Under the pieces are notes generated by a model that saw only the letters and a program-made list of their open reading frames with translations, made no database searches and was not told where the DNA came from. 64,000 nt of DNA, taken from Psococerastis gibbosa (lineage: Eukaryota > Arthropoda > Insecta > Psocodea > Psocidae). Location: contig OZ020489.1 of the NCBI GenBank assembly GCA_963971405.1, positions 12,400,001 through 12,464,000 on the forward strand. Reading direction: 5' to 3'. This document shows positions 803-64,000 of the stretch, piece by piece. The position numbers were made by a program, and so were the translations under genes. Each line of letters opens with the position of its first letter. Position 1 is the first letter of the stretch.

Positions 803-3184
803 AAAGGTATTAAAAAGATATAGGTGTCTTAATTTTGCTTTTTTTGGCTCATTGTATTGTATCTAACATTATGCAATTGCTCCAGCGTGTTCATCGGTGT
901 AAATGTAGCTACAAAAAATTCATTCGACAAGAATACGAAAAATAGCTATATACTTATTTTTTTTTTTAAAGGTCTTGATATGATATGAGTGTCTTAATTT
1001 TGCTTATTTTGGCTCACTGTATTGCACTTAACATTGAGCAATTGCTCCTGCGTGTTCACCGGTGTAAATGTAGCTAAAAAAAATTCATTCGACAAGAATA
1101 AGAAAAATAGCTATTTACTTATTTTATTTTTTTTAAAGGTTTTAAAAAGATATAGGTGTCTTAATTTTGCTTATTTTGGCTCACTGTATTGTACTTAACA
1201 TTGAGCAATTGTTCTTGCGTGTTCATCGGTGTAAATGTGGCTAAAAAAAATTCATTCGACAAGAATAAGAAAAATAGCTATTTACTTATTTTATTTTTTT
1301 TAAAGGTTTTAAAAAGATATAGGTGTCTTTATTTTGCTTATTTTGGCTCAATGTATTGTACTTAACATTCAGCAATTGCTCATGCGTGTTCATCGGTGTA
1401 AATGAAGCTTAAAAAAATTCATACGGCAAGAATACGAAAAATAGCTAATTACTTATTTTATTTTTTTTAAAGGTTTTAAAAAGATATAGGTGTCTTAATT
1501 TTGCTTATTTTGGCTCATTGTACTGTATCTAACATTAGGCAATTGCTCCTGCGTGTTCATCGGTGTAAATGTAGCTACAAAAAATTCATTCGACAAGAAT
1601 ACGAAAAATAGCTATATACTTTTTTTTTTTTTTAAAGGTCTTGATATGATATGGGTGTCTTAATTTTGCTTATTTTGGCTCACTGTATTGCACTTAACAT
1701 TAAGCAATTGCTCCTGCGTGTTCATCGGTGTAAATGTAGCTAAAAAAAATTCATTCGACAAGAATAAGAAAAATAGCTATTTACTTATTTTATTTTTTTT
1801 AAAGGTTTTAAAAAGATATAGGTGTCTTAATTTTGCTTATTTTGGCTCATTGTATTGTACTTAACATTGAGCAATTGTTCTTGCGTGTTCATCGGTGTAA
1901 ATGTGGCTAAAAAAAAATTCATTCGACAAGAATAAGAAAAATAGCTATTTACTTATTTTATTTTTTTTAAAGGTTTTAAAAAGATATAGGTGTCTTAATT
2001 TTGCTTATTTTGGCTCTTTGTACTGTATCTAACATTAGGCAATTGCTCCAGTGTGTTCATCGGTGTAAATGTAGCTACAAAAAATTCATTCGACAAGAAT
2101 ACGAAAAATAGCTATATACTTATTTTTTTTTTAAAGGTCTTGATATGATATGAGTGTCTTAATTTTGCTTATTTTGGCTCATTGTATTGTACTTAACATT
2201 GAGCAATTGCTCCTGCGTGTTCATCGGTGTAAATGTAGCTAAAAAAAATTCATTCGACAAGAATAAGAAAAATAGCTATTTACTTATTTTATTTTTTTTA
2301 AAGGTTTTAAAAAGATATAGGTGTCTTAATTTTGCTTATTTTGGCTCATTGTATTGTACTTAACATTGAGCAATTGTTCTTGCGTGTTCATCGGTGTAAA
2401 TGTAGCTACAAAAAATTCATTCGACAAGAATAAGAAAAATAGCTATTTACTTATTTTATTTTTTTTAAAGGTTTTAAAAAGAGATAGGTGTCTTAATTTT
2501 GCTTATTTTGGCTCATTGTATTGTACTTAACACTGAGCAATTGTTCTTGCGTGTTCATCGGCGTAAATGTGGCTAAAAAAAATTCATTCGACAAGAATAA
2601 GAAAAATAGCTATTTACTTATTTTTTTTTTAAAGGTTTTAAAAAGATATAGGTGTCTTTATTTTGCTTATTTTGGCTCAATGTATTGTACTTAACATTGA
2701 GCAATTGCTCCTGCGTGTTCATCGGTGTAAATATAGCTTAAAAAAATTCATACGGCAAGAATACGAAAAATAGCTAATTACTTATTTTATTTTTTTTAAA
2801 GGTATTAAAAAAATATAGGTGTCTTAATTTTGCTTTTTTTGGCTCATTGTATTGTATCTAACATTATGCAATTGCTCCAGCGTGTTCATCGGTGTAAATG
2901 TAGCTACAAAAAATTCATTCGACAAGAATACGAAAAATAGCTATATACTTATTTTTTTTTTAAAGGTCTTGATATGATATGAGTGTCTTAATTTTGCTTA
3001 TTTTGGCTCACTGTATTGCACTTAACATTGAGCAATTGCTCCTGCGTGCTCATCGGTGTAAATGTAGCTAAAAAAAATTCATTCGACAAGAATAAGAAAA
3101 ATAGCTATTTACTTATTTTATTTTTTTTAAAGGTTTTAAAAAGATATAGGTGTCTTTATTTTGCTTATTTTGGCTCAATGTATT
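803..3184 (+). repeat. Left-edge heterogeneous satellite monomers
   Basis: About 14 monomers of mixed types. They share variant types with the core (the cattcagc type at about 1369, the tgtactgtatctaac type at about 1519, the ctcactgtattgcac type), but I did not see a long near-identical repeating order. The first monomer begins in the aaaggtatt variant directly after the retroelement-like leader. No gene is seen. Confidence 0.8.
1036..1047. repeat. Representative 12-bp perfect palindrome in the monomer core
   Basis: gagcaattgctc is its own reverse complement. It recurs in a large share of monomers at the same place, next to the G+C-richest part of the repeat. Other monomer classes keep only the inner gcaattgc (8 bp) or caattg (6 bp), as in tcagcaattgctctt, ttatgcaattgctcc and gagcaattgttctt. 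A dyad of this kind can bind a dimeric protein; no known binding protein is claimed. Confidence 0.85.
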
Positions 3185-14500: not shown

Positions 14501-14929
14501 GGTGTAAATGTAGCTAAAAAAAATTCATTCGACAAGAATAAGAAAAATAGCTATTTACTTATTTTATTTTTTTTAAAGGTTTTAAAAAGATATAGGTGTC
14601 TTAATTTTGCTTATTTTGGCTCATTGTATTGTACTTAACATTGAGCAATTGTTCTTGCGTGTTCATCGGTGTAAATGTAGCTACAAAAAATTCATTCGAC
14701 AAGAATAAGAAAAATAGCTATTTACTTATTTTATTTTTTTTAAAGGTTTTAAAAAGATATAGGTGTCTTAATTTTGCTTATTTTGGCTCATTGTATTGTA
14801 CTTAACACTGAGCAATTGTTCTTGCGTGTTCATCGGCGTAAATGTGGCTAAAAAAAATTCATTCGACAAGAATAAGAAAAATAGCTATATACTTATTTTA
14901 TTTTTTTTAAAGGTTTTAAAAAGATATAG
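8516..14929 (+). repeat. Mixed satellite block with 6-monomer (~994 bp) order
   Basis: The monomer order that later becomes regular is seen here in parts: gatatgagtgtcttta type, then aatatagctt type, then the ctttttttgg/ttatgc/ctccagcg type, then ctcactgtattgcac type, then ctcaatg/cattgagc type, then tgtactgtatctaac type. Equivalent points about 995 bp apart occur at 10612 and 11607. Order breaks are frequent. No gene is seen. Confidence 0.7.
12753..13420 (+). repeat. Duplicated dimer inside the mixed block
   Basis: The pair made of the aaaggtattaaaaag monomer followed by the ctcactgtattgcac monomer is present twice in a row. The first aggtatt starts at about 12753 and the second at about 13085, 332 bp apart. 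This is a local two-monomer duplication. The only visible difference between the copies is gtgctcatcgg versus gtgttcatcgg in the second monomer. Confidence 0.7.
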
Positions 14930-17900
14930 GTGTCTTTATTTTGCTTATTTTGGCTCAATGTATTGTACTTAACATTCAGCAATTGCTCTTGCGTGTTCAT
15001 CGGTGTAAATGAAGCTTAAAAAAATTCATACGGCAAGAATACGAAAAATAGCTAAATACTTATTTTATTTTTTTAAAGGTTTCAAAAAGATATAGGTGTC
15101 TTAATTTAGCTTATTTTGGCTCATTGTACTGTATCTAACATTAGGCAATTGCTCCTGCGTGTTCATCGGCGTAAATGTAGCTAAAAAAAATTCATTCGAC
15201 AAGAATAAGAAAAATAGCTATTTACTTATTTTTTTTTTAAAGGTCTTGATATGATATGAGTGTCTTTATTTTGCTTATTTTGGCTCATTGTATTGTACTT
15301 AACATTGAGCAATTGCTCCTGCGTGTTCATCGGTGTAAATGTAGCTAAAAAAAATTCGTTCGACAAGAATAAGAAAAATAGCTATTTACTTATTTTTTTT
15401 TTAAAGGTTTTAAAAAGATATAGGTGTCTTTATTTTGCTTATTTTGGCTCAATGTATTGTACTTAACATTGAGCAATTGCTCCTGCGTGTTCATCGGTGT
15501 AAATATAGCTTAAAAAAATTCATACGGCAAGAATACGAAAAATAGCTAATTACTTATTTTATTTTTTTTAAAGGTATTAAAAAGATATAGGTGTCTTAAT
15601 TTTGCTTTTTTTGGCTCATTGTATTGTATCTAACATTATGCAATTGCTCCAGCGTGTTCATCGGTGTAAATGTAGCTACAAAAAATTCATTCGACAAGAA
15701 TACGAAAAATAGCTATATACTTATTTTTTTTTTTAAAGGTCTTGATATGATATGAGTGTCTTAATTTTGCTTATTTTGGCTCACTGTATTGCACTTAACA
15801 TTGAGCAATTGCTCCTGCGTGCTCATCGGTGTAAATGTAGCTAAAAAAAATTCGTTCGACAAGAATAAGAAAAATAGCTATTTACTTATTTTATTTTTTT
15901 TAAAGGTTTTAAAAAGATATAGGTGTCTTTATTTTGCTTATTTTGGCTCAATGTATTGTACTTAACATTCAGCAATTGCTCTTGCGTGTTCATCGGTGTA
16001 AATGAAGCTTAAAAAAATTCATACGGCAAGAATACGAAAAATAGCTAATTACTTATTTTATTTTTTTTAAAGGTTTTAAAAAGATATAGGTGTCTTAATT
16101 TTGCTTATTTTGGCTCATTGTACTGTATCTAACATTAGGCAATTGCTCCTATGTGTTCATCGGCGTAAATGTAGCTAAAAAAAATTCATTCGACAAGAAT
16201 AAGAAAAATAGCTATTTACTTATTTTTTTTTTAAAGGTCTTGATATGATATGAGTGTCTTTATTTTGCTTATTTTGGCTCATTGTATTGTACTTAACATT
16301 GAGCAATTGCTCCTGCGTGTTCATCGGTGTAAATGTAGCTAAAAAAAATTCGTTCGACAAGAATAAGAAAAATAGCTATTTACTTATTTTTTTTTTAAAG
16401 GTTTTAAAAAGATATAGGTGTCTTTATTTTGCTTATTTTGGCTCAATGTATTGTACTTAACATTGAGCAATTGCTCCTGCGTGTTCATCGGTGTAAATAT
16501 AGCTTAAAAAAATTCATACGGCAAGAATACGAAAAATAGCTAATTACTTATTTTATTTTTTTTAAAGGTATTAAAAAGATATAGGTGTCTTAATTTTGCT
16601 TTTTTTGGCTCATTGTATTGTATCTAACATTATGCAATTGCTCCAGCGTGTTCATCGGTGTAAATGTAGCTACAAAAAATTCATTCGACAAGAATACGAA
16701 AAATAGCTATATACTTATTTTTTTTTTTAAAGGTCTTGATATGATATGAGTGTCTTAATTTTGCTTATTTTGGCTCACTGTATTGCACTTAACATTGAGC
16801 AATTGCTCCTGCGTGCTCATCGGTGTAAATGTAGCTAAAAAAAATTCATTCGACAAGAATAAGAAAAATAGCTATTTACTTATTTTATTTTTTTTAAAGG
16901 TTTTAAAAAGATATAGGTGTCTTTATTTTGCTTATTTTGGCTCAATGTATTGTACTTAACATTGAGCAATTGCTCCTGCGTGTTCATCGGTGTAAATGTA
17001 GCTTAAAAAAATTCATACGGCAAGAATACGAAAAATAGCTAATTACTTATTTTATTTTTTTTAAAGGTTTTAAAAAGATATAGGTGTCTTAATTTTGCTT
17101 ATTTTGGCTCATTGTACTGTATCTAACATTAGGCAATTGCTCCTGCGTGTTCATCGGTGTAAATGTAGCTAAAAAAAATTCATTCGACAAGAATAAGAAA
17201 AATAGCTATTTACTTATTTTTTTTTTAAAGGTCTTGATATGATATGAGTGTCTTTATTTTGCTTATTTTGGCTCATTGTATTGTACTTAACATTGAGCAA
17301 TTGCTCCTGCGTGTTCATCGGTGTAAATGTAGCTAAAAAAAATTCGTTCGACAAGAATAAGAAAAATAGCTATTTACTTATTTTATTTTTTTTAAAGGTT
17401 TTAAAAAGATATAGGTGTCTTTATTTTGCTTATTTTGGCTCAATGTATTGTACTTAACATTCAGCAATTGCTCTTGCGTGTTCATCGGTGTAAATGAAGC
17501 TTAAAAAAATTCATACGGCAAGAATACGAAAAATAGCTAATTACTTATTTTATTTTTTTTAAAGGTTTTAAAAAGATATAGGTGTCTTAATTTTGCTTAT
17601 TTTGGCTCATTGTACTGTATCTAACATTAGGCAATTGCTCCTGCGTGTTCATCGGCGTAAATGTAGCTAAAAAAAATTCATTCGACAAGAATAAGAAAAA
17701 TAGCTATTTACTTATTTTTTTTTTAAAGGTCTTGATATGATATGAGTGTCTTTATTTTGCTTATTTTGGCTCATTGTATTGTACTTAACATTGAGCAATT
17801 GCTCCTGCGTGTTCATCGGTGTAAATGTAGCTAAAAAAAATTCGTTCGACAAGAATAAGAAAAATAGCTATTTACTTATTTTTTTTTAAAGGTTTTAAAA

Positions 17901-20900
17901 AGATATAGGTGTCTTTATTTTGCTTATTTTGGCTCAATGTATTGTACTTAACATTGAGCAATTGCTCCTGCGTGTTCATCGGTGTAAATATAGCTTAAAA
18001 AAATTCATACGGCAAGAATACGAAAAATAGCTAATTACTTATTTTATTTTTTTTAAAGGTATTAAAAAGATATAGGTGTCTTAATTTTGCTTTTTTTGGC
18101 TCATTGTATTGTATCTAACATTATGCAATTGCTCCAGCGTGTTCATCGGTGTAAATGTAGCTACAAAAAATTCATTCGACAAGAATACGAAAAATAGCTA
18201 TATACTTATTTTTTTTTTTAAAGGTCTTGATATGATATGAGTGTCTTAATTTTGCTTATTTTGGCTCACTGTATTGCACTTAACATTGAGCAATTGCTCC
18301 TGCGTGCTCATCGGTGTAAATGTAGCTAAAAAAAATTCGTTCGACAAGAATAAGAAAAATAGCTATTTACTTATTTTATTTTTTTTAAAGGTTTTAAAAA
18401 GATATAGGTGTCTTTATTTTGCTTATTTTGGCTCAATGTATTGTACTTAACATTCAGCAATTGCTCTTGCGTGTTCATCGGTGTAAATGAAGCTTAAAAA
18501 AATTCATACGGCAAGAATACGAAAAATAGCTAATTACTTATTTTATTTTTTTTAAAGGTTTTAAAAAGATATAGGTGTCTTAATTTTGCTTATTTTGGCT
18601 CATTGTACTGTATCTAACATTAGGCAATTGCTCCTATGTGTTCATCGGCGTAAATGTAGCTAAAAAAAATTCATTCGACAAGAATAAGAAAAATAGCTAT
18701 TTACTTATTTTTTTTTTAAAGGTCTTGATATGATATGAGTGTCTTTATTTTGCTTATTTTGGCTCATTGTATTGTACTTAACATTGAGCAATTGCTCCTG
18801 CGTGTTCATCGGTGTAAATGTAGCTAAAAAAAATTCGTTCGACAAGAATAAGAAAAATAGCTATTTACTTATTTTTTTTTTAAAGGTTTTAAAAAGATAT
18901 AGGTGTCTTTATTTTGCTTATTTTGGCTCAATGTATTGTACTTAACATTGAGCAATTGCTCCTGCGTGTTCATCGGTGTAAATATAGCTTAAAAAAATTC
19001 ATACGGCAAGAATACGAAAAATAGCTAATTACTTATTTTATTTTTTTTAAAGGTATTAAAAAGATATAGGTGTCTTAATTTTGCTTTTTTTGGCTCATTG
19101 TATTGTATCTAACATTATGCAATTGCTCCAGCGTGTTCATCGGTGTAAATGTAGCTACAAAAAATTCATTCGACAAGAATACGAAAAATAGCTATATACT
19201 TATTTTTTTTTTTAAAGGTCTTGATATGATATGAGTGTCTTAATTTTGCTTATTTTGGCTCACTGTATTGCACTTAACATTGAGCAATTGCTCCTGCGTG
19301 CTCATCGGTGTAAATGTAGCTAAAAAAAATTCATTCGACAAGAATAAGAAAAATAGCTATTTACTTATTTTATTTTTTTTAAAGGTTTTAAAAAGATATA
19401 GGTGTCTTTATTTTGCTTATTTTGGCTCAATGTATTGTACTTAACATTGAGCAATTGCTCCTGCGTGTTCATCGGTGTAAATGTAGCTTAAAAAAATTCA
19501 TACGGCAAGAATACGAAAAATAGCTAATTACTTATTTTATTTTTTTTAAAGGTTTTAAAAAGATATAGGTGTCTTAATTTTGCTTATTTTGGCTCATTGT
19601 ACTGTATCTAACATTAGGCAATTGCTCCTGCGTGTTCATCGGTGTAAATGTAGCTAAAAAAAATTCATTCGACAAGAATAAGAAAAATAGCTATTTACTT
19701 ATTTTTTTTTTAAAGGTCTTGATATGATATGAGTGTCTTTATTTTGCTTATTTTGGCTCATTGTATTGTACTTAACATTGAGCAATTGCTCCTGCGTGTT
19801 CATCGGTGTAAATGTAGCTAAAAAAAATTCGTTCGACAAGAATAAGAAAAATAGCTATTTACTTATTTTATTTTTTTTAAAGGTTTTAAAAAGATATAGG
19901 TGTCTTTATTTTGCTTATTTTGGCTCAATGTATTGTACTTAACATTCAGCAATTGCTCTTGCGTGTTCATCGGTGTAAATGAAGCTTAAAAAAATTCATA
20001 CGGCAAGAATACGAAAAATAGCTAATTACTTATTTTATTTTTTTTAAAGGTTTTAAAAAGATATAGGTGTCTTAATTTTGCTTATTTTGGCTCATTGTAC
20101 TGTATCTAACATTAGGCAATTGCTCCTGCGTGTTCATCGGCGTAAATGTAGCTAAAAAAAATTCATTCGACAAGAATAAGAAAAATAGCTATTTACTTAT
20201 TTTTTTTTTAAAGGTCTTGATATGATATGAGTGTCTTTATTTTGCTTATTTTGGCTCATTGTATTGTACTTAACATTGAGCAATTGCTCCTGCGTGTTCA
20301 TCGGTGTAAATGTAGCTAAAAAAAATTCGTTCGACAAGAATAAGAAAAATAGCTATTTACTTATTTTTTTTTAAAGGTTTTAAAAAGATATAGGTGTCTT
20401 TATTTTGCTTATTTTGGCTCAATGTATTGTACTTAACATTGAGCAATTGCTCCTGCGTGTTGATCGGTGTAAATATAGCTTAAAAAAATTCATACGGCAA
20501 GAATACGAAAAATAGCTAATTACTTATTTTATTTTTTTTAAAGGTATTAAAAAGATATAGGTGTCTTAATTTTGCTTTTTTTGGCTCATTGTATTGTATC
20601 TAACATTATGCAATTGCTCCAGCGTGTTCATCGGTGTAAATGTAGCTAAAAAAAATTCGTTCGACAAGAATAAGAAAAATAGCTATTTACTTATTTTATT
20701 TTTTTTAAAGGTTTTAAAAAGATATAGGTGTCTTTATTTTGCTTATTTTGGCTCAATGTATTGTACTTAACATTCAGCAATTGCTCTTGCGTGTTCATCG
20801 GTGTAAATGAAGCTTAAAAAAATTCATACGGCAAGAATACGAAAAATAGCTAATTACTTATTTTATTTTTTTTAAAGGTTTTAAAAAGATATAGGTGTCT

Positions 20901-46806: not shown

Positions 46807-47595
46807 CTCATCGGTGTAAATGTAGCTAAAAAAAATTCATTCGACAAGAATAAGAAAAATAGCTATTTACTTATTTTATTTTTTTTAAAGGTTTTAAAAA
46901 GATATAGGTGTCTTTATTTTGCTTATTTTGGCTCAATGTATTGTACTTAACATTGAGCAATTGCTCCTGCGTGTTCATCGGTGTAAATGTAGCTTAAAAA
47001 AATTCATACGGCAAGAATACGAAAAATAGCTAATTACTTATTTTATTTTTTTTAAAGGTTTTAAAAAGATATAGGTGTCTTAATTTTGCTTATTTTGGCT
47101 CATTGTACTGTATCTAACATTAGGCAATTGCTCCTGCGTGTTCATCGGTGTAAATGTAGCTAAAAAAAATTCATTCGACAAGAATAAGAAAAATAGCTAT
47201 TTACTTATTTTTTTTTTAAAGGTCTTGATATGATATGAGTGTCTTTATTTTGCTTATTTTGGCTCATTGTATTGTACTTAACATTGAGCAATTGCTCCTG
47301 CGTGTTCATCGGTGTAAATGTAGCTAAAAAAAATTCGTTCGACAAGAATAAGAAAAATAGCTATTTACTTATTTTATTTTTTTTAAAGGTTTTAAAAAGA
47401 TATAGGTGTCTTAATTTTGCTTATTTTGGCTCATTGTATTGTACTTAACATTGAGCAATTGTTCTTGCGTGTTCATCGGTGTAAATGTAGCTACAAAAAA
47501 TTCATTCGACAAGAATAAGAAAAATAGCTATTTACTTATTTTATTTTTTTAAAGGTTTTAAAAAGATATAGGTGTCTTAATTTTGCTTATTTTGG

Positions 47596-49399: not shown

Positions 49400-52300
49400 G
49401 GTGTCTAAATTTTGCTTATTTTGGCTCATTGTACTGTATCTAACATTAGGCAATTGCTCCAGCGTGTTCATCGGTGTAAATGTAGCTACAAAAAATTCAT
49501 TCGACAAGAATACGAAAAATAGCTATTTACTTATTTTATTTTTTTTAAAGGTTTTAAAAAGATATAGGTGTCTTAATTTTGCTTATTTTGGCTCATTGTA
49601 TTGTATTTAACATTAAGCAATTGTTCCTGCGTGTTCATCGGTGTAAATGTGGCTAAAAAAAATTCATTCGACAAGAATATGAAAAATAGCTATTTACTTA
49701 TTTTATTTTTTTAAAGGTTTTAAAAAGATAAAGGTGTCTTAATTTCGCTTATTTTGGCTCATTGTATTGTACTTAACATTGAGCAATTGTTCCTGCGTGT
49801 TCATCGGTGTAAATGTAGCTAAAAAAAATTCATTCGACAAGAATAAGAAAAATAGCTATTTACTTATTTTATTTTTTTAAAGGTCTTATAAGATATAGGT
49901 GTCTTAATTTTGCTTATTTTGGCTCATTGTACTGTATCTAACATTAGGCAATTGCTCCTGCGTGTACATTGGTGAAAATGTAGCTACAAAAAATTCATTC
50001 GACAAGAATACGAAAAATAGCTATATACTTATTTTATTTTTTTTAAAGGTCTTGATATGATAACGGTGTCTTAATTTTATTTATTTTGGCTCATTGTATT
50101 GAACTTAACATTGAGCAATTGCTCCTGATTGTTCATCGGTGTAAATGTAGCTAAATAAAATTCATTCGACAAGAATAAGAAAAAGAGCTATTTACTTATT
50201 TTATTTTTTTTAAAGGTTTTAAAAGGATATAGGTGTCTTTATTTTGCTTATTTTGGCTCAATGTATTGTACTTAACATTGAGCAATTGTTCCTGCGTGTT
50301 CATCGGTGTAAATGTGGCTAAAAAAAATTCATTCGACAAGAATAAGAAATATAGCTATTTACTTATTTTTTTTTTTTTTTAAAGGTTTTAAAAAGATATA
50401 GGTGTCTTTATTTTGCTTATTTTGGCTCAATGTATTGTACTTAACATTGAGCAATTGCTCCTGCGTGTTCATCAGTGTAAATGTAGCTTAAAAAAATTCA
50501 TTCGACAAGAATACGAAAAATAGCTATATACTTATTTTTTTTTTAAAAGGTCTTGATATGATATGAGTGTCTTAATTTTGCTTATTTTGGCTCATTGTAT
50601 TGTACTTAACATTGAGCAATTGCTCCTGCGTGTTCATCGGTGTAAATGAAGCTTAAAAAAATTCATACGGCAAGAATACGAAAAATAGCTAATTACTTAT
50701 TTTATTTTTTTAAAGGTTTTAAAAAGATACAGGTGTCTTTATTTTGCTTATTTTGGCTCAATGTATTGTACTTAACATTCAGCAATTGCTCTTGCGTGTT
50801 CATCGGTGTAAGTGAAGCTTAAAAAAATTCATACGGCAAGAATACGAAAAATAGCTAATTACTTATTTTATTTTTTTTAAAGGTTTTAAAAAGATATAGG
50901 TGTCTTAATTTTGCTTATTTTGGCTCATTGTACTGTATCTAACATAAGGCAATTGCTCCAGCGTGTTCATCGGTGTAAATGTAGCTACAAAAAATTCATT
51001 CGACAAGAATACGAAAAATAGCTATATACTTATTTTTTTTTTAAAGGTCTTGATATGATATGAGTGTCTTAATTTTGCTTATTTTGGCTCATTGTATTGT
51101 ACTTAACATTGAGCAATTGCTCCTGCGTGTTCATCGGTGTAAATGTAGCTAAAAAAAATTCATTCGACAAGAATAAGAAAAATAGCTATTTACTTATTTT
51201 ATTTTTTTTAAAGGTTTTAAAAAGATATAGGTGTCTTTATTTTGCTTATTTTGGCTCAATGTACTGTACTTAACATTCAGCAATTGCTCTTGCGTGTTCA
51301 TCGGTGTAAATGAAGCTTAAAAAAATTCATACGGCAAGAATACGAAAAATAGCTAATTACTTATTTTATTTTTTTTAAAGGTTTTAAAAAGATATAGGTG
51401 TCTTAATTTTGCTTATTTTGGCTCATTGTACTGTATCTAACATTAGGCAATTGCTCCTGCGTGTTCATCGGTGTAAATGTAGCTAAAAAAAATTCATTCG
51501 ACAAGAATAAGAAAACTAGCTATTTACTTATTTTTTTTTTAAAGGTCTTGATATGATATGAGTGTCTTTATTTTGCTTATTTTGGCTCATTGTATTGTAC
51601 TTAACATTGAGCAATTGCTCCTGCGTGTTCATCGGTGTAAATGTAGCTAAAAAAATTCGTTCGACAAGAATAAGAAAAATAGCTATTTACTTATTTTATT
51701 TTTTTTAAAGGTTTTAAAAAGATATAGGTGTCTTTATTTTGCTTATTTTGGCTCAATGTATTGTACTTAACATTGAGCAATTGCTCCTGCGTGTTCATCG
51801 GTGTAAATGAAGCTTAAAAAAATTCATACGGCAAGAATACGAAAAATAGCTAATTACTTATTTTATTTTTTTTAAAGGTTTTAAAAAGGTATAGGTGTCT
51901 TAATTTTGCTTATTTTGGCTCATTGTACTGTATCTAACATTAGGCAATTGCTCCAGCGTGTTCATCGGTGTAAATGTAGCTACAAAAAATTCATTCGACA
52001 AGAATAAGAAAAATAGCTATTTACTTATTTTATTTTCTTTAAAGGTTTTAAAAAGATATAGGTGTCTTTATTTTGCTTATTTTGGCTCAATGTATTGTAC
52101 TTAACATTGAGCAATTGCTCCTGCGTGTTCATCGGTGTAAATGTAGCTTAAAAAAATTCATACGGCAAGAATACGAAAAATAGCTAATTACTTATTTTAT
52201 TTTTTTTAAAGGTTTTAAAAAGATATAGGTGTCAAAATTTTGCTTATTTTGGCTCATTGTACTGTATCTAACATTAGGCAATTGCTCCAGCGTGTTCATC

Positions 52301-53191
52301 GGTGTAAATGTAGCTACAAAAAATTCATTCGACAAGAATACGAAAAATAGCTATTTACTTATTTTATTTTTTTTAAAGGTTTTAAAAAGATATAGGTGTC
52401 TTAATTTTGCTTATTTTGGCTCATTGTATTGTATTTAACATTAAGCAATTGTTCCTGCGTGTTCATCGGTGTAAATGTGGCTAAAAAAAATTCATTCGAC
52501 AAGAATATGAAAAATAGCTATTTACTTATTTTATTTTTTTAAAGGTTTTAAAAAGATAAAGGTGTCTTAATTTCGCTTATTTTGGCTCATTGTATTGTAC
52601 TTAACATTGAGCAATTGTTCCTGCGTGTTCATCGGTGTAAATGTAGCTAAAAAAAATTCATTCGACAAGAATAAGAAAAATAGCTATTTACTTATTTTAT
52701 ATTTTTAAAGGTCTTATAAGATATAGGTGTCTTAATTTTGCTTATTTAGGCTCATTGTATTGTACTTAACATTGACCACTTGCTCCTGCGTGTACATTGG
52801 TGAAAATGTAGCTACAAAAAATTCATTCGACAAGAATACGAAAAATAGCTATATACTTATTTTATTTTTTTTAAAGGTCTTGATATGATAACGGTGTCTT
52901 AATTTTATTTATTTTGGCTCATTGTATTGAACTTAACATTGAGCAATTGCTCCTGATTGTTCATCGGTGTAAATGTAGCTAAATAAAATTCATTCGACAA
53001 GAATAAGAAAAAGAGCTATTTACTTATTTTATTTTTTTTTAAAGGTTTTAAAAGGATATAGGTGTCTTTATTTTGCTTATTTTGGCTCAATGTATTGTAC
53101 TTAACATTGAGCAATTGTTCCTGCGTGTTCATCGGTGTAAATGTGGCTAAAAAAAATTCATTCGACAAGAATAAGAAAAATAGCTATTTAC

Positions 53192-53210
53192 TTTTTTTTT
53201 TTTTTTTTTT
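53192..53210 (+). repeat. Expanded T tract (19 T) at the monomer boundary
   Basis: Each monomer ends in a T-rich tract before aaagg, usually ttattttattttttt or an uninterrupted run of about 8-11 T. Here the run is 19 T, with similar runs at 55,023-55,041 (19) and 62,017-62,034 (18), all in equivalent monomers of the right-hand family. Confidence 0.9.
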
Positions 53211-54610
53211 AAAGGTTTTAAAAAGATATAGGTGTCTTTATTTTGCTTATTTTGGCTCAATGTATTGTACTTAACATTGAGCAATTGCTCCTGCGTGTTC
53301 ATCAGTGTAAATGTAGCTTAAAAAAATTCATTCGACAAGAATACGAAAAATAGCTATATACTTATTTTTTTTTTAAAAGGTCTTGATATGATATGAGTGT
53401 CTTAATTTTGCTTATTTTGGCTCATTGTATTGTACTTAACATTGAGCAATTGCTCCTGCGTGTTCATCGGTGTAAATGAAGCTTAAAAAAATTCATACGG
53501 CAAGAATACGAAAAATAGCTAATTACTTATTTTATTTTTTTAAAGGTTTTAAAAAGATACAGGTGTCTTTATTTTGCTTATTTTGGCTCAATGTATTGTA
53601 CTTAACATTCAGCAATTGCTCTTGCGTGTTCATCGGTGTAAATGAAGCTTAAAAAAATTCATACGGCAAGAATACGAAAAATAGCTAATTACTTATTTTA
53701 TTTTTTTTAAAGGTTTTAAAAAGATATAGGTGTCTTAATTTTGCTTATTTTGGCTCATTGTACTGTATCTAACATAAGGCAATTGCTCCAGCGTGTTCAT
53801 CGGTGTAAATGTAGCTACAAAAAATTCATTCGACAAGAATACGAAAAATAGCTATATACTTATTTTTTTTTTAAAGGTCTTGATATGATATGAGTGTCTT
53901 AATTTTGCTTATTTTGGCTCATTGTATTGTACTTAACATTGAGCAATTGCTCCTGCGTGTTCATCGGTGTAAATGTAGCTAAAAAAAATTCATTCGACAA
54001 GAATAAGAAAAATAGCTATTTACTTATTTTATTTTTTTTAAAGGTTCTAAAAAGATATAGGTGTCTAAATTTTGCTTATTTTGGCTCATTGTACTGTATC
54101 TAACATTAGGCAATTGCTTTAGCGTGTTCATCGGTGTAAATGTAGCTACAAAAAATTCATTCGACAAGAATACGAAAAATAGCTATTTACTTATTTTATC
54201 TTTTTTAAAGGTTTTAAAAAGATATAGGTGTCTAAATTTTGCTTATTATGGCTCATTGTACTGTATCTAACATTAGGCAATTGCTCCAGCGTGTTCATCG
54301 GTGTAAATGTAGCTACAAAAAATTCATTCGACAAGAATACGAAAAATAGCTATTTACTTATTTTATTTTTTTTAAAGGTTTTAAAAAGATATAGGTGTCT
54401 TAATTTTGCTTATTTTGGCTCATTGTATTGTATTTAACATTAAGCAATTGTTCCTGCGTGTTCATCGGTGTAAATGTGGCTAAAAAAAATTCATTCGACA
54501 AGAATATGAAAAATAGCTATTTACTTATTTTATTTTTTTAAAGGTTTTAAAAAGATAAAGGTGTCTTAATTTCGCTTATTTTGGCTCATTGTATTGTACT
54601 TAACATTGAG

Positions 54611-54648
54611 CTAACTATTGTTTAACTATTGTTTAACTATTGAACTAA
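54611..54648 (+). repeat. 38-bp insertion with an 11-bp triplicated motif
   Basis: In place of taacattgagcaattg, this monomer carries 38 extra bases after gag. They consist of two exact taactattgtt units (54612-54622, 54623-54633), a third ending in gaa (54634-54644), and then ctaa. It is absent from all equivalent monomers (for example near 52,605, 56,440 and 58,605). The units resemble the local taacattg/caattg sequence, which suggests replication slippage. Confidence 0.9.
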
Positions 54649-54984
54649 CAATTGTTCCTGCGTGTTCATCGGTGTAAATGTAGCTAAAAAAAATTCATTC
54701 GACAAGAATAAGAAAAATAGCTATTTACTTATTTTATTTTTTTAAAGGTCTTATAAGATATAGGTGTCTTAATTTTGCTTATTTAGGCTCATTGTATTGT
54801 ACTTAACATTGACCACTTGCTCCTGCGTGTACATTGGTGAAAATGTAGCTACAAAAAATTCATTCGACAAGAATACGAAAAATAGCTATATACTTATTTT
54901 ATTTTTTTTAAAGGTCTTGATATGATAACGGTGTCTTAATTTTATTTATTTTGGCTCATTGTATTGAACTTAACATTGAGCAAT

Positions 54985-55041
54985 TGCTCCTGATTGTTCA
55001 TCGGTATAAAATAGCTATTTACTTTTTTTTTTTTTTTTTTT
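54985..55041 (+). repeat. Truncated, fused monomer with 19-base T tract
   Basis: The sequence passes from tgttcatcggtataaa straight to atagctatttac, so it skips the usual gtagct/attcgacaag half. It then enters a run of 19 T (55023-55041). Compared with the unit at about 56,780-57,045, roughly one monomer plus part of another is missing, which explains the short 1,792-bp unit here. Confidence 0.8.
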
Positions 55042-58000
55042 AAAGGTTTTAAAAAGATATAGGTGTCTTTATTTTGCTTATTTTGGCTCAATGTATTGTA
55101 CTTAACATTGAGCAATTGCTCCTGCGTGTTCATCAGTGTAAATGTAGCTTAAAAAAATTCATTCGACAAGAATACGAAAAATAGCTATATACTTATTTTT
55201 TTTTTTAAAGGTCTTGATATGATATGAGTGTCTTAATTTTGCTTATTTTGGCTCATTGTATTGTACTTAACATTGAGCAATTGCTCCTGCGTGTTCATCG
55301 GTGTAAATGAAGCTTAAAAAAATTCATACGGCAAGAATACGAAAAATAGCTAATTACTTATTTTATTTTTTTAAAGGTTTTAAAAAGATACAGGTGTCTT
55401 TATTTTGCTTATTTTGGCTCAATGTATTGTACTTAACATTCAGCAATTGCCCTTGCGTGTTCATCGGTGTAAATGAAGCTTAAAAAAATTCATACGGCAA
55501 GAATACGAAAAATAGCTAATTACTTATTTTATTTTTTTTAAAGGTTTTAAAAAGATATAGGTGTCTTAATTTTGCTTATTTTGGCTCATTGTACTGTATC
55601 TAACATAAGGCAATTGCTCCAGCGTGTTCATCGGTGTAAATGTAGCTACAAAAAATTCATTCGACAAGAATACGAAAAATAGCTATATACTTATTTTTTT
55701 TTTAAAGGTCTTGATATGATATGAGTGTCTTAATTTTGCTTATTTTGGCTCATTGTATTGTACTTAACATTGAGCAATTGCTCCTGCGTGTTCATCGGTG
55801 TAAATGTAGCTAAAAAAAATTCATTCGACAAGAATAAGAAAAATAGCTATTTACTTATTTTATTTTTTTAAAGGTTCTAAAAAGATATAGGTGTCTAAAT
55901 TTTGCTTATTTTGGCTCATTGTACTGTATCTAACATTAGGCAATTGCTTTAGCGTGTTCATCGGTGTAAATGTAGCTACAAAAAATTCATTCGACAAGAA
56001 TACGAAAAATAGCTATTTACTTATTTTATCTTTTTTAAAGGTTTTAAAAAGATATAGGTGTCTAAATTTTGCTTATTTTGGCTCATTGTACTGTATCTAA
56101 CATTAGGCAATTGCTCCAGCGTGTTCATCGGTGTAAATGTAGCTACAAAAAATTCATTCGACAAGAATACGAAAAATAGCTATTTACTTATTTTATTTTT
56201 TTTAAAGGTTTTAAAAAGATATAGGTGTCTTAATTTTGCTTATTTTGGCTCATTGTATTGTATTTAACATTAAGCAATTGTTCCTGCGTGTTCATCGGTG
56301 TAAATGTGGCTAAAAAAAATTCATTCGACAAGAATATGAAAAATAGCTATTTACTTATTTTATTTTTTTAAAGGTTTTAAAAAGATAAAGGTGTCTTAAT
56401 TTCGTTTATTTTGGCTCATTGTATTGTACTTAACATTGAGCAATTGTTCCTGCGTGTTCATCGGTGTAAATGTAGCTAAAAAAAATTCATTCGACAAGAA
56501 TAAGAAAAATAGCTATTTACTTATTTTATTTTTTTAAAGGTCTTATAAGATATAGGTGTCTTAATTTTGCTTATTTAGGCTCATTGTATTGTACTTAACA
56601 TTGACCACTTGCTCCTGCGTGTACATTGGTGAAAATGTAGCTACAAAAAATTCATTCGACAAGAATACGAAAAATAGCTATATACTTATTTTATTTTTTT
56701 TAAAGGTCTTGATATGATAACGGTGTCTTAATTTTATTTATTTTGGCTCATTGTATTGAACTTAACATTGAGCAATTGCTCCTGATTGTTCATCGGTGTA
56801 AATGTAGCTAAATAAAATTCATTCGACAAGAATAAGAAAAAGAGCTATTTACTTATTTTATTTTTTTTAAAGGTTTTAAAAGGATATAGGTGTCTTTATT
56901 TTGCTTATTTTGGCTCAATGTATTGTACTTAACATTGAGCAATTGTTCCTGCGTGTTCATCGGTGTAAATGTGGCTAAAAAAAATTCATTCGACAAGAAT
57001 AAGAAAAATAGCTATTTACTTATTTTTTTTTTTTTTTTAAAGGTTTTAAAAAGATATAGGTGTCTTTATTTTGCTTATTTTGGCTCAATGTATTGTACTT
57101 AACATTGAGCAATTGCTCCTGCGTGTTCATCAGTGTAAATGTAGCTTAAAAAAATTCATTCGACAAGAATACGAAAAATAGCTATATACTTATTTTTTTT
57201 TTTAAAGGTCTTGATATGATATGAGTGTCTTAATTTTGCTTATTTTGGCTCATAGTATTGTACTTAACATTGAGCAATTGCTCCTGCGTGTTCATCGGTG
57301 TAAATGAAGCTTAAAAAAATTCATACGGCAAGAATACGAAAAATAGCTAATTACTTATTTTATTTTTTTAAAGGTTTTAAAAAGATACAGGTGTCTTTAT
57401 TTTGCTTATTTTGGCTCAATGTATTGTACTTAACATTCAGCAATTGCTCTTGCGTGTTCATCGGTGTAAATGAAGCTTAAAAAAATTCATACGGCAAGAA
57501 TACGAAAAATAGCTAATTACTTATTTTATTTTTTTTAAAGGTTTTAAAAAGATATAGGTGTCTTAATTTTGCTTATTTTGGCTCATTGTACTGTATCTAA
57601 CATAAGGCAATTGCTCCAGCGTGTTCATCGGTGTAAATGTAGCTACAAAAAATTCATTCGACAAGAATACGAAAAATAGCTATTTACTTATTTTTTTTTT
57701 AAAGGTCTTGATATGATATGAGTGTCTTAATTTTGCTTATTTTGGCTCATTGTATTGTGCTTAACATTGAGCAATTGCTCCTGCGTGTTCATCGGTGTAA
57801 ATGTAGCTAAAAAAAATTCATTCGACAAGAATAAGAAAAATAGCTATTTACTTATTTTATTTTTTTTAAAGGTTCTAAAAAGATATAGGTGTCTAAATTT
57901 TGCTTATTTTGGCTCATTGTACTGTATCTAACATTAGGCAATTGCTTTAGCGTGTTCATCGGTGTAAATGTAGCTACAAAAAATTCATTCGACAAGAATA

Positions 58001-61000
58001 CGAAAAATAGCTATTTACTTATTTTATTTTTTTTAAAGGTTTTAAAAAGATATAGGTGTCTTAATTTTGCTTATTTTGGCTCATTGTATTGTACTTAACA
58101 TTGAGCAATTGTTCCTGCGTGTTCATCGGTGTAAATGTAGCTAAAAAAAATTCATTCGACAAGAATACGAAAAATAGCTATTTACTTATTTTATCTTTTT
58201 TAAAGGTTTTAAAAAGATATAGGTGTCTAAATTTTGCTTATTTTGGCTCATTGTACTGTATCTAACATTAGGCAATTGCTCCAGCGTGTTCATCGGTGTA
58301 AATGTAGCTACAAAAAATTCATTCGACAAGAATACGAAAAATAGCTATTTACTTATTTTATTTTTTTTAAAGGTTTTAAAAAGATATAGGTGTCTTAATT
58401 TTGCTTATTTTGGCTCATTGTATTGTATTTAACATTAAGCAATTGTTCCTGCGTGTTCATCGGTGTAAATGTGGCTAAAAAAAATTCATTCGACAAGAAT
58501 ATGAAAAATAGCTATTTACTTATTTTATTTTTTTAAAGGTTTTAAAAAGATAAAGGTGTCTTAATTTCGCTTATTTTGGCTCATTGTATTGTACTTAACA
58601 TTGAGCAATTGTTCCTGCGTGTTCATCGGTGTAAATGTAGCTAAAAAAAATTCATTCGACAAGAATAAGAAAAATAGCTATTTACTTATTTTATTTTTTT
58701 AAAGGTCTTATAAGATATAGGTGTCTTAATTTTGCTTATTTAGGCTCATTGTATTGTACTTAACATTGACCACTTGCTCCTGCGTGTACATTGGTGAAAA
58801 TGTAGCTACAAAAAATTCATTCGACAAGAATACGAAAAATAGCTATATACTTATTTTATTTTTTTTAAAGGTCTTGATATGATAACGGTGTCTTAATTTT
58901 ATTTATTTTGGCTCATTGTATTGAACTTAACATTGAGCAATTGCTCCTGATTGTTCATCGGTGTAAATGTAGCTAAATAAAATTCATTCGACAAGAATAA
59001 GAAAAAGAGCTATTTACTTATTTTATTTTTTTTAAAGGTTTTAAAAGGATATAGGTGTCTTTATTTTGCTTATTTTGGCTCAATGTATTGTACTTAACAT
59101 TGAGCAATTGTTCCTGCGTGTTCATCGGTGTAAATGTGGCTAAAAAAAATTCATTCGACAAGAATAAGAAAAATAGCTATTTACTTATTTTTTTTTTTTT
59201 TTAAAGGTTTTAAAAAGATATAGGTGTCTTTATTTTGCTTATTTTGGCTCAATGTATTGTACTTAACATTGAGCAATTGCTCCTGCGTGTTCATCAGTGT
59301 AAATGTAGCTTAAAAAAATTCATTCGACAAGAATACGAAAAATAGCTATATACTTATTTTTTTTTTTAAAGGTCTTGATATGATATGAGTGTCTTAATTT
59401 TGCTTATTTTGGCTCATTGTATTGTACTTAACATTGAGCAATTGCTCCTGCGTGTTCATCGGTGTAAATGAAGCTTAAAAAAATTCATACGGCAAGAATA
59501 CGAAAAATAGCTAATTACTTATTTTATTTTTTTAAAGGTTTTAAAAAGATACAGGTGTCTTTATTTTGCTTATTTTGGCTCAATGTATTGTACTTAACAT
59601 TCAGCAATTGCTCTTGCGTGTTCATCGGTGTAAATGAAGCTTAAAAAAATTCATACGGCAAGAATACGAAAAATAGCTAATTACTTATTTTATTTTTTTT
59701 AAAGGTTTTAAAAAGATATAGGTGTCTTAATTTTGCTTATTTTGGCTCATTGTACTGTATCTAACATAAGGCAATTGCTCCAGCGTGTTCATCGGTGTAA
59801 ATGTAGCTACAAAAAATTCATTCGACAAGAATACGAAAAATAGCTATTTACTTATTTTTTTTTTAAAGGTCTTGATATGATATGAGTGTCTTAATTTTGC
59901 TTATTTTGGCTCATTGTATTGTGCTTAACATTGAGCAATTGCTCCTGCGTGTTCATCGGTGTAAATGTAGCTAAAAAAAATTCATTCGACAAGAATAAGA
60001 AAAATAGCTATTTACTTATTTTATTTTTTTTAAAGGTTCTAAAAAGATATAGGTGTCTAAATTTTGCTTATTTTGGCTCATTGTACTGTATCTAACATTA
60101 GGCAATTGCTTTAGCGTGTTCATCGGTGTAAATGTAGCTACAAAAAATTCATTCGACAAGAATACGAAAAATAGCTATTTACTTATTTTATTTTTTTTAA
60201 AGGTTTTAAAAAGATATAGGTGTCTTAATTTTGCTTATTTTGGCTCATTGTATTGTACTTAACATTGAGCAATTGTTCCTGCGTGTTCATCGGTGTAAAT
60301 GTAGCTAAAAAAAATTCATTCGACAAGAATAAGAAAAATAGCTATTTACTTATTTTATTTTTTTTAAAGGTTTTAAAAAGATATAGGTGTCTTAATTTTG
60401 CTTATTTTGGCTCATTGTATTGTACTTAACATTGAGCAATTGTTCTTGCGTGTTCATCGGTGTAAATGTGGCTAAAAAAAATTCATTCGACAAGAATAAG
60501 AAAAATAGCTATTTACTTATTTTATTTTTTTTAAAGGTTTTAAAAAGATATAGGTGTCTTTATTTTGCTTATTTTGGCTCAATGTATTGTACTTAACATT
60601 CAGCAATTGCTCTTGCGTGTTCATCGGTGTAAATGAAGCTTAAAAAAATTCATACGGCAAGAATACGAAAAATAGCTAATTACTTATTTTATTTTTTTTA
60701 AAGGTTTTAAAAAGGTATAGGTGTCTTAATTTTGCTTATTTTGGCTCATTGTACTGTATCTAACATTAGGCAATTGCTCCAGCGTGTTCATCGGTGTAAA
60801 TGCAGCTACAAAAAATTCATTCGACAAGAATAAGAAAAATAGCTATTTACTTATTTTATTTTTTTTAAAGGTTTTAAAAAGATATAGGTGTCTTTATTTT
60901 GCTTATTTTGGCTCAATGTATTGTACTTAACATTGAGCAATTGCTCCTGCGTGTTCATCGGTGTAAATGTAGCTTAAAAAAATTCATACGGCAAGAATAC

Positions 61001-64000
61001 GAAAAATAGCTAATTACTTATTTTATTTTTTTTAAAGGTTTTAAAAAGATATAGGTGTCTAAATTTTGCTTATTTTGGCTCATTGTACTGTATCTAACAT
61101 TAGGCAATTGCTCCAGCGTGTTCATCGGTGTAAATGTAGCTACAAAAAATTCATTCGACAAGAATACGAAAAATAGCTATTTACTTATTTTATTTTTTTT
61201 AAAGGTTTTAAAAAGATATAGGTGTCTTAATTTTGCTTATTTTGGCTCATTGTATTGTATTTAACATTAAGCAATTGTTCCTGCGTGTTCATCGGTGTAA
61301 ATGTGGCTAAAAAAAATTCATTCGACAAGAATATGAAAAATAGCTATTTACTTATTTTATTTTTTTAAAGGTTTTAAAAAGATAAAGGTGTCTTAATTTC
61401 GCTTATTTTGGCTCATTGTAATGTACTTAACATTGAGCAATTGTTCCTGCGTGTTCATCGGTGTAAATGTAGCTAAAAAAAATTCATTCGACAAGAATAA
61501 GAAAAATAGCTATTTACTTATTTTATTTTTTTAAAGGTCTTATAAGATATAGGTGTCTTAATTTTGCTTATTTAGGCTCATTGTATTGTACTTAACATTG
61601 ACCACTTGCTCCTGCGTGTACATTGGTGAAAATGTAGCTACAAAAAATTCATTCGACAAGAATACGAAAAATAGCTATATACTTATTTTATTTTTTTTAA
61701 AGGTCTTGATATGATAACGGTGTCTTAATTTTATTTATTTTGGCTCATTGTATTGAACTTAACATTGAGCAATTGCTCCTGATTGTTCATCGGTGTAAAT
61801 GTAGCTAAATAAAATTCATTCGACAAGAATAAGAAAAATAGCTATTTACTTATTTTTTTTTTTTTAAAGGTTTTAAAAGGATATAGGTGTCTTTATTTTG
61901 CTTATTTTGGCTCAATGTATTGTACTTAACATTGAGCAATTGTTCCTGCGTGTTCATCGGTGTAAATGTGGCTAAAAAAAATTCATTCGACAAGAATAAG
62001 AAAAATAGCTATTTACTTTTTTTTTTTTTTTTTTAAAGGTTTTAAAAAGATATAGGTGTCTTTATTTTGCTTATTTTGGCTCAATGTATTGTACTTAACA
62101 TTGAGCAATTGCTCCTGCGTGTTCATCAGTGTAAATGTAGCTTAAAAAAATTCATTCGACAAGAATACGAAAAATATCTATATACTTATTTTTTTTTTAA
62201 AAGGTCTTGATATGATATGAGTGTCTTAATTTTGCTTATTTTGGCTCATTGTATTGTACTTAACATTGAGCAATTGCTCCTGCGTGTTCATCGGTGTAAA
62301 TGAAGCTTAAAAAAATTCATACGGCAAGAATACGAAAAATAGCTAATTACTTATTTTATTTTTTTAAAGGTTTTAAAAAGATACAGGTGTCTTTATTTTG
62401 CTTATTTTGGCTCAATGTATTGTACTTAACATTCAGCAATTGCTCTTGCGTGTTCATCGGTGTAAATGAAGCTTAAAAAAATTCATACGGCAAGAATACG
62501 AAAAATAGCTAATTACTTATTTTATTTTTTTTAAAGGTTTTAAAAAGATATAGGTGTCTTAATTTTGCTTATTTTGGCTCATTGTACTGTATCTAACATA
62601 AGGCAATTGCTCCAGCGTGTTCATCGGTGTAAATGTAGCTACAAAAAATTCATTCGACAAGAATACGAAAAATAGCTATATACTTATTTTTTTTTTAAAG
62701 GTCTTGATATGATATGAGTGTCTTAATTTTGCTTATTTTGGCTCATTGTATTGTACTTAACATTGAGCAATTGCTCCTGCGTGTTCATCGGTGTAAATGT
62801 AGCTAAAAAAAATTCATTCGACAAGAATAAGAAAAATAGCTATTTACTTATTTTATTTTTTTTAAAGGTTTTTAAAAGATATAGGTGTCTAAATTTTGCT
62901 TATTTTGGCTCACTGTATTGTACTTAACATTGAGCAATTGTTCCTGCGTGTTCATCGGTGTAAATGTAGCTAAAAAAAATTCATTCGACAAGAATACGAA
63001 AAATAGCTATTTACTTATTTTATTTTTTTTAAAGGTTTTAAAAAGATATAGGTGTCTTAATTTTGCTTATTTTGGCTCACTGTATTGTACTTAACATTGA
63101 GCAATTGTTCCTGCGTGTTCATCGGTGTAAATGTAGCTAAAAAAAATTCATTCGACAAGAATAAGAAAAATAGCTATTTACTTATTTTATTTTTTTTAAA
63201 GGTTTTAAAAAGATATAGGTGTCTTAATTTTGCTTATTTTGGCTCATTGTATTGTACTTAACATTAAGCAATTGCTCCTGCGTGTTCATCGGTGTAAATG
63301 TGGCTAAAAAAAATTCATTCGACAAGAATATGAAAAATAGCTATTTACTTATTTTATTTTTTTTAAAGGTTTTAAAAAAATAAAGGTGTCTTAATTTTGC
63401 TTATTTTGGCTCATTGTATTGTACTTAACATTGAGCAATTGTTCCTGCGTGTTCATCAGTGTAAATGTAGCTAAAAAAAATTCATTCGACAAGAATAAGA
63501 AAAATAGCTATTTACTTATTTTATTTTTTTTAAAGGTTTTAAAAAGATATAGGTGTCTTTATTTTGCTTATTTTGGCTCAATGTATTGTACTTAACATTG
63601 AGCAATTGCTCCTGCGTGTTCATCGGTGTAAATGTAGCTTAAAAAAATTCATACGGCAAGAATACGAAAAATAGCTAATTACTTATTTTATTTTTTTTAA
63701 AGGTTTTAAAAAGATATAGGTGTCTTAATTTTGCTTATTTAGGCTCATTGTATTGTACTTAACATTGGCCACTTGCTCCTGCGTGTTCATCGGTGTAAAT
63801 GTAGCTACAAAAAATTCATTCGACAAGAATACGAAAAATAGCTATATACTTATTTTTTTTTAAAGGTCTTGATATGATATGAGTGTCTTAATTTTGCTTA
63901 TTTTGGCTCATTGTATTGTGCTTAACATTGAGCAATTGCTCCTGCGTGTTCATCGGTGTAAATGTAGCTAAAAAAAATTCATTCGACAAGAATAAGAAAA

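What the first reader, a model, noticed from the sequence alone, without database searches (positions are those of the whole stretch)
803..64000. Uninterrupted >63-kb satellite of a ~166-bp monomer with several nested levels of higher-order repeat
The sequence shows 6-mer (994 bp), 15-mer (2,485 bp), 24-mer (3,973 bp), 22-mer (3,646 bp) and 56-mer (9,280 bp) periodicities in one array, all in one orientation and with no transposon insertions. Such homogenised HOR arrays are best known from primate alpha satellite at centromeres. I do not recognise this family as a named satellite.
Basis: partly seen in the sequence, partly recalled or inferred. Interest (0 to 1): 0.75.

Follow-up and report, generated by a model that had tools for sequence, protein, structure and literature searches.

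The report
Barkfly satellite blocks with nested repeats
This is part of a megabase block of a 167-letter tandem repeat in a barkfly, an insect reported to have no localized centromeres, yet the block is organised much like human centromere DNA, and related blocks lie near the ends or inside most of its chromosomes.

Summary
In detail: window 803-64000 is 381 contiguous, same-strand monomers (mode 167 bp, mean identity 0.908). The offsets 994, 2485, 3646, 3973 and 9280 bp are real. In the window, the trimer/hexamer and a variable 11-17-mer (six copies) recur; the long offsets are local tandem duplications of about 1.7-2.3 copies. Bases 1-802 are a non-LTR retrotransposon inserted in the array; this one insertion is present six times.

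The window is Psococerastis gibbosa (barkfly) chromosome 6, inside a block from about 11.3 to 12.75 Mb. The family was seen on 8 of 10 chromosomes. Eleven sets of three large-scale markers have satellite in the same relative orientation, 11 of 11. The block is layered: its core resembles other contigs' satellite more than its own edges. Window variants recur collinearly on chromosome 4.

Cytology papers call the species holokinetic with AT-rich terminal C-bands; no CenH3 was seen among the histones examined. Best reading: exchangeable, mostly subterminal heterochromatin with alpha-satellite-like evolution, not a CenH3 centromere. PCR-amplified reads of about 9.4 kb leave long-range order and internal placement uncertain.

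The parts
1..802 (-). 5' part of a non-LTR retrotransposon (whole element about 5.6 kb, C14:12395228-12400803) inserted in the satellite; start of ORF1 at 3-746 on the minus strand
   Evidence: Six copies with 0-2 differences over 5576 bp; ORF2 has endonuclease, reverse transcriptase and RNase H domains; dispersed copies elsewhere
803..812 (.). Probable target-site duplication of ten bases; its partner lies at the other end of the element, outside the window
   Evidence: Both junctions of all six copies printed; the left 60-bp flank has one variant base among the six
803..64000 (+). AT-rich satellite array, 381 monomers, mode 167 bp; continues on both sides beyond the window
14909..20539 (+). 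15-mer tandem duplication, 2485 bp, about 2.3 copies
   Evidence: 19-monomer run, mean identity 0.998
18718..27825 (+). 24-mer tandem duplication, 3973 bp, about 2.3 copies; contains the longest exact repeat of the window (5297 bp)
   Evidence: 31-monomer run, mean identity 1.000; exact repeat
22855..38766 (+). 56-mer duplication, 9280 bp, about 1.7 copies
   Evidence: 40-monomer run, mean identity 0.9995
40260..47551 (+). 22-mer tandem duplication, 3646 bp, 2 copies
   Evidence: 22-monomer run, mean identity 0.9995
49879..62500 (+). Region of a variable-length higher-order unit (11-17 monomers, 1.8-2.8 kb), six copies of its marker types; includes a 13-mer duplication at 56037-60366; a 44-mer private to this region recurs only on C12
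   Evidence: right limit approximate
17838..37609 (+). Nine copies of a 55-mer found elsewhere in the genome only on C12 (17 copies, inverted)

Best explanation
The window is part of the homogenised core of a heterochromatic satellite block on chromosome 6 of the barkfly P. gibbosa, one of many blocks of the same AT-rich 167-bp family, most of them near one chromosome end. Shown: a trimer/hexamer pattern overwritten by recent tandem segmental duplications, one set of which carried a single retrotransposon insertion to six copies; a core more like satellite of other contigs than like its own edges; variants shared in the same order with the block on chromosome 4; sets of large-scale markers beside satellite in a fixed relative orientation on 7 chromosomes. 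Inferred: unequal exchange makes the duplications, and ectopic exchange (or copying) of long segments between blocks on non-homologous chromosomes spreads variants and markers. Inferred function: constitutive heterochromatin corresponding to the AT-rich terminal C-bands reported for this species, without a CenH3-based centromere role.
For: Array anatomy and duplications. One insertion in six copies with shared junctions and shared neighbouring satellite. Satellite on 8 of 10 chromosomes, near one end on seven (C2, C3, C13, C14, C15, C19, C20), internal on three (C12, C14, C15). Layering: 26 edge monomers mean best identity to core 0.920, 29 from other contigs 0.961. Sharing with C12. Marker sets beside satellite with agreeing orientation in 11 of 11; for four of these (C3, C19, two on C15) satellite had not been seen before and was then found. 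Literature: holokinetic, AT-rich terminal C-bands. No CenH3 among the histone matches examined.
Against: The blocks on C12, C14 (11.3-12.75 Mb) and C15 (27.2-27.46 Mb) are internal, which does not match terminal C-bands; megabase blocks also sit badly with C-bands described as tiny. The C14 block is flanked by a near-identical non-satellite duplication, so its placement may be an assembly error. Reads of about 9.4 kb are close to the longest exact repeat (9266 bp). Edge, other-contig and core comparisons rest on few monomers per place. No chromatin, FISH or expression data; function is inferred.
Confidence: 0.62

Rival explanations
1. The megabase arrays organise the kinetochore: either the species is functionally monocentric or oligocentric, or it has a holocentromere made of a few megabase arrays, as in the plant Chionographis japonica, but without CenH3.
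For: Megabase satellite arrays with higher-order repeats, young core and old edges are what primate centromeres show; holocentromeres of a few megabase arrays exist (PMC10264360, passages); a stick insect mixes mono- and holocentric traits (PMC11691646, abstract).
Against: Species reported holokinetic; chromosome 6 has two blocks and chromosome 7 two, mostly near ends; no CenH3 seen; no CENP-B box above chance. The CENP-C search was empty but its Ndc80 control was too, so it does not count.
Confidence: 0.1
2. Part of the long-range picture is an assembly artefact: misplaced satellite contigs or two haplotypes of one block put on chromosomes 4 and 6.
For: PCR-amplified HiFi reads of about 9.4 kb; non-satellite DNA at C14:10.9988-11.0002 Mb recurs at 12.7598-12.7612 Mb at 98.5-100%, with a further 96% match at 11.0154/12.780 Mb; collinear C14/C12 variants; the genome note lists 91 curated joins and 358 gaps.
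Against: The fetched 264 kb around the window hold no N. C12 and C14 differ in copy number and spacing of the shared variants, the retrotransposon copies with this junction occur on C14 only, and satellite with matching marker orientation recurs on seven chromosomes.
Confidence: 0.3
3. The marker set is a giant transposable element that inserts in satellite, rather than a duplicated piece of the blocks themselves.
For: The middle marker is 95-100% identical at dispersed places, among them C13:10.72 and C15:17.01 Mb where satellite was not looked for; the outer marker belongs to a repeat with other, non-satellite copies.
Against: In 11 of 11 sets the satellite nearby has the same relative orientation; a satellite-preferring transposon should land in both orientations. 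Outer spacing varies from 84 to 134 kb.
Confidence: 0.2

Closest known systems
Primate alpha satellite (171-bp monomer, HOR arrays, layered expansion; recalled)
   Same: Nucleosome-length AT-rich monomer, higher-order repeats, recent segmental duplications, homogenised core between more divergent edges, core shared between non-homologous chromosomes
   Different: Holokinetic host, no CenH3 seen, no CENP-B box above chance, irregular rather than regular HORs, mostly near chromosome ends, several blocks per chromosome in places
Chimpanzee and gorilla subterminal satellite caps with segmental-duplication spacers (recalled)
   Same: AT-rich satellite blocks near chromosome ends, interspersed with large duplicated segments shared among chromosomes
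   Different: 167-bp instead of 32-bp unit, higher-order repeats, different host; the marker set was seen only as three markers, not as full sequence
Terminal satellite heterochromatin of holocentric true bugs such as Edessa (PMC13427858, passages)
   Same: Holocentric insect; satellite as a main component of terminal heterochromatin
   Different: No higher-order repeats are mentioned in that text by the words I searched; layering and shared large segments are not described in the passages seen
Chionographis japonica megabase-array holocentromere (PMC10264360, passages)
   Same: A few megabase satellite arrays on holocentric chromosomes; a higher-order repeat cluster is mentioned
   Different: CENH3-associated, 23- and 28-bp units, plant; no kinetochore data here

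Membership tests
Satellite DNA | Long head-to-tail arrays of a non-coding unit, many copies in the genome | tested here: met
   381 monomers in the window; 23,156 genome copies of one 37-mer, reversed control 0
Higher-order repeat array | Multi-monomer units repeated many times with identity far above that between monomers | tested here: inconclusive
   Hexamer type string 17 times, variable 11-17-mer six times, lag 24 in six runs over 264 kb; but no regular unit covers the array, and the long offsets are about two copies each
Primate alpha satellite | CENP-B box in part of the monomers | tested here: not met
   Best match 6 of 9 core bases in the consensus; 307 of 500 shuffles reach 6 or more. 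Only the consensus was tested
Primate alpha satellite | Sequence homology to alpha satellite | not tested
   No alpha satellite sequence or repeat library was compared
CenH3 centromere | A CenH3 gene in the genome | tested here: inconclusive
   37 histone-family matches; 15 fetched, 8 of them H3-like, none with the CENP-A loop where it is covered (6 of 8); 22 not fetched, six of them weak and unclassified
CenH3 centromere | CenH3 or kinetochore enrichment on the array | not testable with these tools
   No chromatin data
Subterminal heterochromatin caps | Satellite near chromosome ends | tested here: met
   Within about 1.6 Mb of one end on seven chromosomes; three blocks are internal
Subterminal heterochromatin caps | Large duplicated segments shared among the caps of different chromosomes | tested here: met
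   11 marker sets on seven chromosomes, each with satellite nearby; full sequence not compared

The most novel reading that the evidence does not exclude
Alpha-satellite-style evolution (higher-order repeats, young core between old edges, cores shared between non-homologous chromosomes) runs to megabase scale in an insect with holokinetic chromosomes and no CenH3 seen. Localized CenH3 chromatin would then not be needed for layered expansion, and what moves between chromosomes would be whole heterochromatin segments of satellite plus an orientation-locked stretch of about 85 kb or more.
Probability: 0.38. Interest if true: 0.8.

Novelty: new variant of a known kind. Interest (0 to 1): 0.58.

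Why it matters
Layered expansion and HOR formation in alpha satellite are often put down to kinetochore-linked recombination or centromere drive (recalled). A holokinetic insect with the same pattern would make that attribution testable. In the rows listed by my searches (open-licence PubMed Central papers only) I saw no satellite described for Psocoptera, and this family is a candidate for the AT-rich terminal C-bands reported in this species.

Tried and rejected
Regex anchors for cutting monomers missed most copies and were replaced by nhmmer. A 19-mer gave 0 hits in viral contigs and 2 in the prokaryote genomes; by my arithmetic about 2 are expected by chance in 257 Gb. ORF1 gave no relatives in viral contigs and no Pfam match. 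Harmonia axyridis was considered as host and dropped when the assembly size led to P. gibbosa. CENP-C and Ndc80 searches were uninformative. A self-BLAST of the 264-kb stretch returned only two rows and was replaced by an exact-repeat search. One array per chromosome was rejected: C14 and C15 each have two blocks. Satellite targeting by the retrotransposon is unsupported: the two dispersed copies whose 5' surroundings I read have no satellite there; other dispersed copies were not read.

Rows dropped for the marker count: I used only the outer-marker hits whose range and score recur as a group; hits with other ranges or identities (for example on C1, C12:33.4, C14:15.4, C2:13.7, C3:10.9 and 12.9 Mb) were left out as other copies of that repeat. 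Middle markers without an outer partner (C12:21.02 and 18.62, C13:10.72 Mb) and two middle-plus-second-outer pairs (C15:17.0 Mb, C56) were not counted, and satellite was not looked for at C13:10.72, C15:17.0 or C56.
Full report
WHAT IS THERE. The window is a tandem array from 803 to 64000: period 167, 380.8 copies; 381 monomers on the + strand with no unmatched gap above 28 bp. Mean pairwise identity is 0.908. GC is about 28% in the array, against 38-39% for the autosomes (Table 3 of the genome note). Monomer types fall largely into a trimer frame, with ABC and ABE alternating into the 994-bp hexamer; the string BCABEA occurs 17 times. Mean identity at lags 3, 6, 24 and 56 was reached by 0 of 1000 order shuffles, at lag 15 by 80 and at lag 22 by 375. 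The long offsets come from runs of 40 monomers at lag 56, 31 at lag 24, 22 at lag 22, 19 at lag 15 and 13 at lag 13, each 99.8-100% identical, against at most 5 in 20 shuffles. That is 1.7-2.3 copies each. Between about 50 and 62.5 kb a variable unit of 11-17 monomers recurs six times. Over the surrounding 264 kb lag 24 is found in six separate runs, so it is the nearest thing to a recurring long unit; lag 56 is found in one.

THE LEFT EDGE. Bases 1-802 belong to a non-LTR retrotransposon of about 5.6 kb with endonuclease, reverse transcriptase and RNase H domains. It occurs six times, same strand, between C14:12305495 and 12400803, with 0-2 differences over 5576 bp, the same insertion point and a ten-base probable target-site duplication; the left 60-bp flank has one variant base. 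Neighbouring satellite is shared: one pair of segments, 12349819-12367359 and 12373863-12391401, is 17.5 kb long with mean monomer identity 0.999 and contains the element. One insertion was therefore multiplied with its surroundings. The genome search with window 1-800 gave 18 places; six reach the junction, all in this block. Two of the dispersed copies were read at their 5' side: no satellite there, and 49 more 5' bases.

WHERE IT IS. The window is C14:12400001-12464000 of an assembly of 409,210,807 bases in 68 contigs. C14 is chromosome 6. Samples put the block between 11.25/11.30 and 12.745/12.76 Mb. It holds a short inverted piece at 12501105-12502337 and an inverted sample at 12.60 Mb. 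One 37-mer has 23,156 exact copies in the genome (12,157 forward, 10,999 reverse), reversed control 0. At its density in the 264-kb stretch (396 copies in about 230 kb of satellite) this would mean roughly 13 Mb, about 3% of the assembly; this is my extrapolation.

OTHER BLOCKS. Satellite was seen on C2 (0 to at least 1.2 Mb), C3 (0.20-0.56), C12 (18.8-20.9), C13 (0-0.28), C14 (0-1.2, but not in the sample at 1.0, and 11.3-12.75), C15 (27.20-27.46 and 34.69), C19 (34.01-34.15) and C20 (0-0.1); several of these short samples score weakly (15-30 bits). It also begins 9 of 14 small contigs sampled: C4-C11, C16-C18, C22-C24. It was not seen in the two end samples of C1 or the one sample of C21; the listed first 100 places of the 37-mer begin with C2. 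TTAGG telomere repeats were seen at the C3 start, the C4 start and at seven of nine sampled chromosome ends.

LAYERING. Twenty-six full monomers from samples at 11.3-11.8 and 12.6-12.75 Mb have mean best identity 0.920 to the 264-kb core; 29 from other contigs have 0.961 (Mann-Whitney p=3e-7). Mean identities: within core 0.909-0.924, core to other contigs 0.904-0.909, core to edges 0.873-0.881, left to right edge 0.864, within edges 0.858-0.864, edges to other contigs 0.871-0.877. So the core is nearer to other contigs than to its own edges, and the edges are diverse and unlike everything, themselves included. This is what a young core between old edges would give. It rests on 82 sampled monomers, one to four per place for most places.

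SHARING WITH CHROMOSOME 4. A 44-mer private to the 50-59 kb part of the window occurs 8 times in the genome, 4 here and 4 at C12:19.385-19.407 Mb. A 55-mer of the 17-38 kb part occurs 26 times, 9 here and 17 at C12:19.428-19.501 Mb. A 70-mer occurs four times: C14:12.303 Mb, C12:20.126 and 20.130 Mb, and the start of C2. Order is conserved and reversed, as is the satellite strand on C12. Spacings and numbers differ.

THE MARKER SETS. Searches with two non-satellite stretches beside the block (C14:11.25 and 12.78 Mb) gave repeats. An outer marker, a middle marker 69-80 kb on (95-100% identical) and a second outer marker recur in this order in 11 sets on C2, C3, C12 (2), C13, C14 (3), C15 (2) and C19; the second outer marker lies 84-95 kb from the first in seven sets, 134 kb in one, and was not listed in three. 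All 11 have a satellite sample within 270 kb, 10 of 11 within 70 kb, and satellite strand and set orientation agree in 11 of 11. For the sets on C3, C19 and C15 (two) satellite had not been seen there before. In several sets satellite was found on one side only. The rows left out are told under Tried and rejected. Whether the set marks a duplicated heterochromatin segment or a giant transposon is open; the fixed orientation favours the former.

DOUBTS. The reads were PCR-amplified and average about 9.4 kb (22.19 Gb in 2.36 million reads). The longest exact repeat is 9,266 bp in the 264 kb and 5,297 bp in the window. Non-satellite DNA at C14:10.9988-11.0002 Mb recurs right of the block at 12.7598-12.7612 Mb, 98.5-100% identical in the pieces compared; further on, 138 bases at 12.780 Mb match 11.0154 Mb at 96%, while a direct comparison of 11.0189 with 12.780 Mb gave nothing. 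This may be a retained haplotype, a misjoin or a true duplication. The internal position of this block is the weakest point.

CENTROMERE OR NOT. P. gibbosa is reported holokinetic with 2n=16+X(0) (PMC6910881, parts 1 and 2 of 3 read), with tiny AT-rich terminal C-bands (PMC8490342, passages). CenH3 was not found in lice and Hemiptera; Psocoptera does not occur in that text (PMC4359364, passages). Here the histone family gave 37 matches. I fetched 15: 8 are H3-like (two of them partial or decayed, 76%; six 93-99% identical to H3), none with the CENP-A loop in the six that cover it; 6 are H2A- or H2B-like; one (L125) matched none of five yardsticks; 22 matches were not fetched, six of them weak and unclassified. 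This fits loss of CenH3 but does not prove it. The CENP-C search was empty, but so was the Ndc80 control. The consensus has no CENP-B box above chance.

CONCLUSION. Best reading: exchangeable, mostly subterminal satellite heterochromatin in a holokinetic insect, evolving like alpha satellite. Known neighbours: satellite in terminal heterochromatin of holocentric bugs (PMC13427858, passages), a holocentromere of megabase arrays in a plant (PMC10264360, passages), and a stick insect with chromosome-specific centromere repeats (PMC11691646, abstract). Psocoptera are listed as holocentric in PMC7392213 (passages).

Noticed in passing
G000:C14:11085363-11086704 (outside the window): A mitochondrial COX1 insertion in two adjoining pieces covering nearly the whole family model, with only TGA as stops, which the mitochondrial code reads as Trp: a recent-looking NUMT about 200 kb left of the block.
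   Followed up: no
G000:C21 (chromosome named Y, 12.03 Mb): The genome note names a Y chromosome, while two cytology papers give P. gibbosa as X(0). The scaffold has 34% GC; it could be a B chromosome, a neo-Y or collected heterochromatin.
   Followed up: no
window 54612-54642: An 11-bp unit repeated 2.8 times inside one monomer, making the single 204-bp monomer of the window.
   Followed up: no
L001-L008 and L017: The retrotransposon has near-identical dispersed copies (94-100%) on several chromosomes and open frames in the array copy, so it may still be active.
   Followed up: partly
G000:C14:12760001-12760400 and C14:10998966-10999365: A dispersed palindromic repeat with 100% identical copies on both sides of the block; other listed copies are 95% or less.
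   Followed up: partly
G000:C14:1-400 and C20:1-400: The first 400 bases of both contigs are satellite on the minus strand, while samples at 50 kb (C14) and 100 kb (C20) are on the plus strand: an inversion near these contig ends.
   Followed up: no
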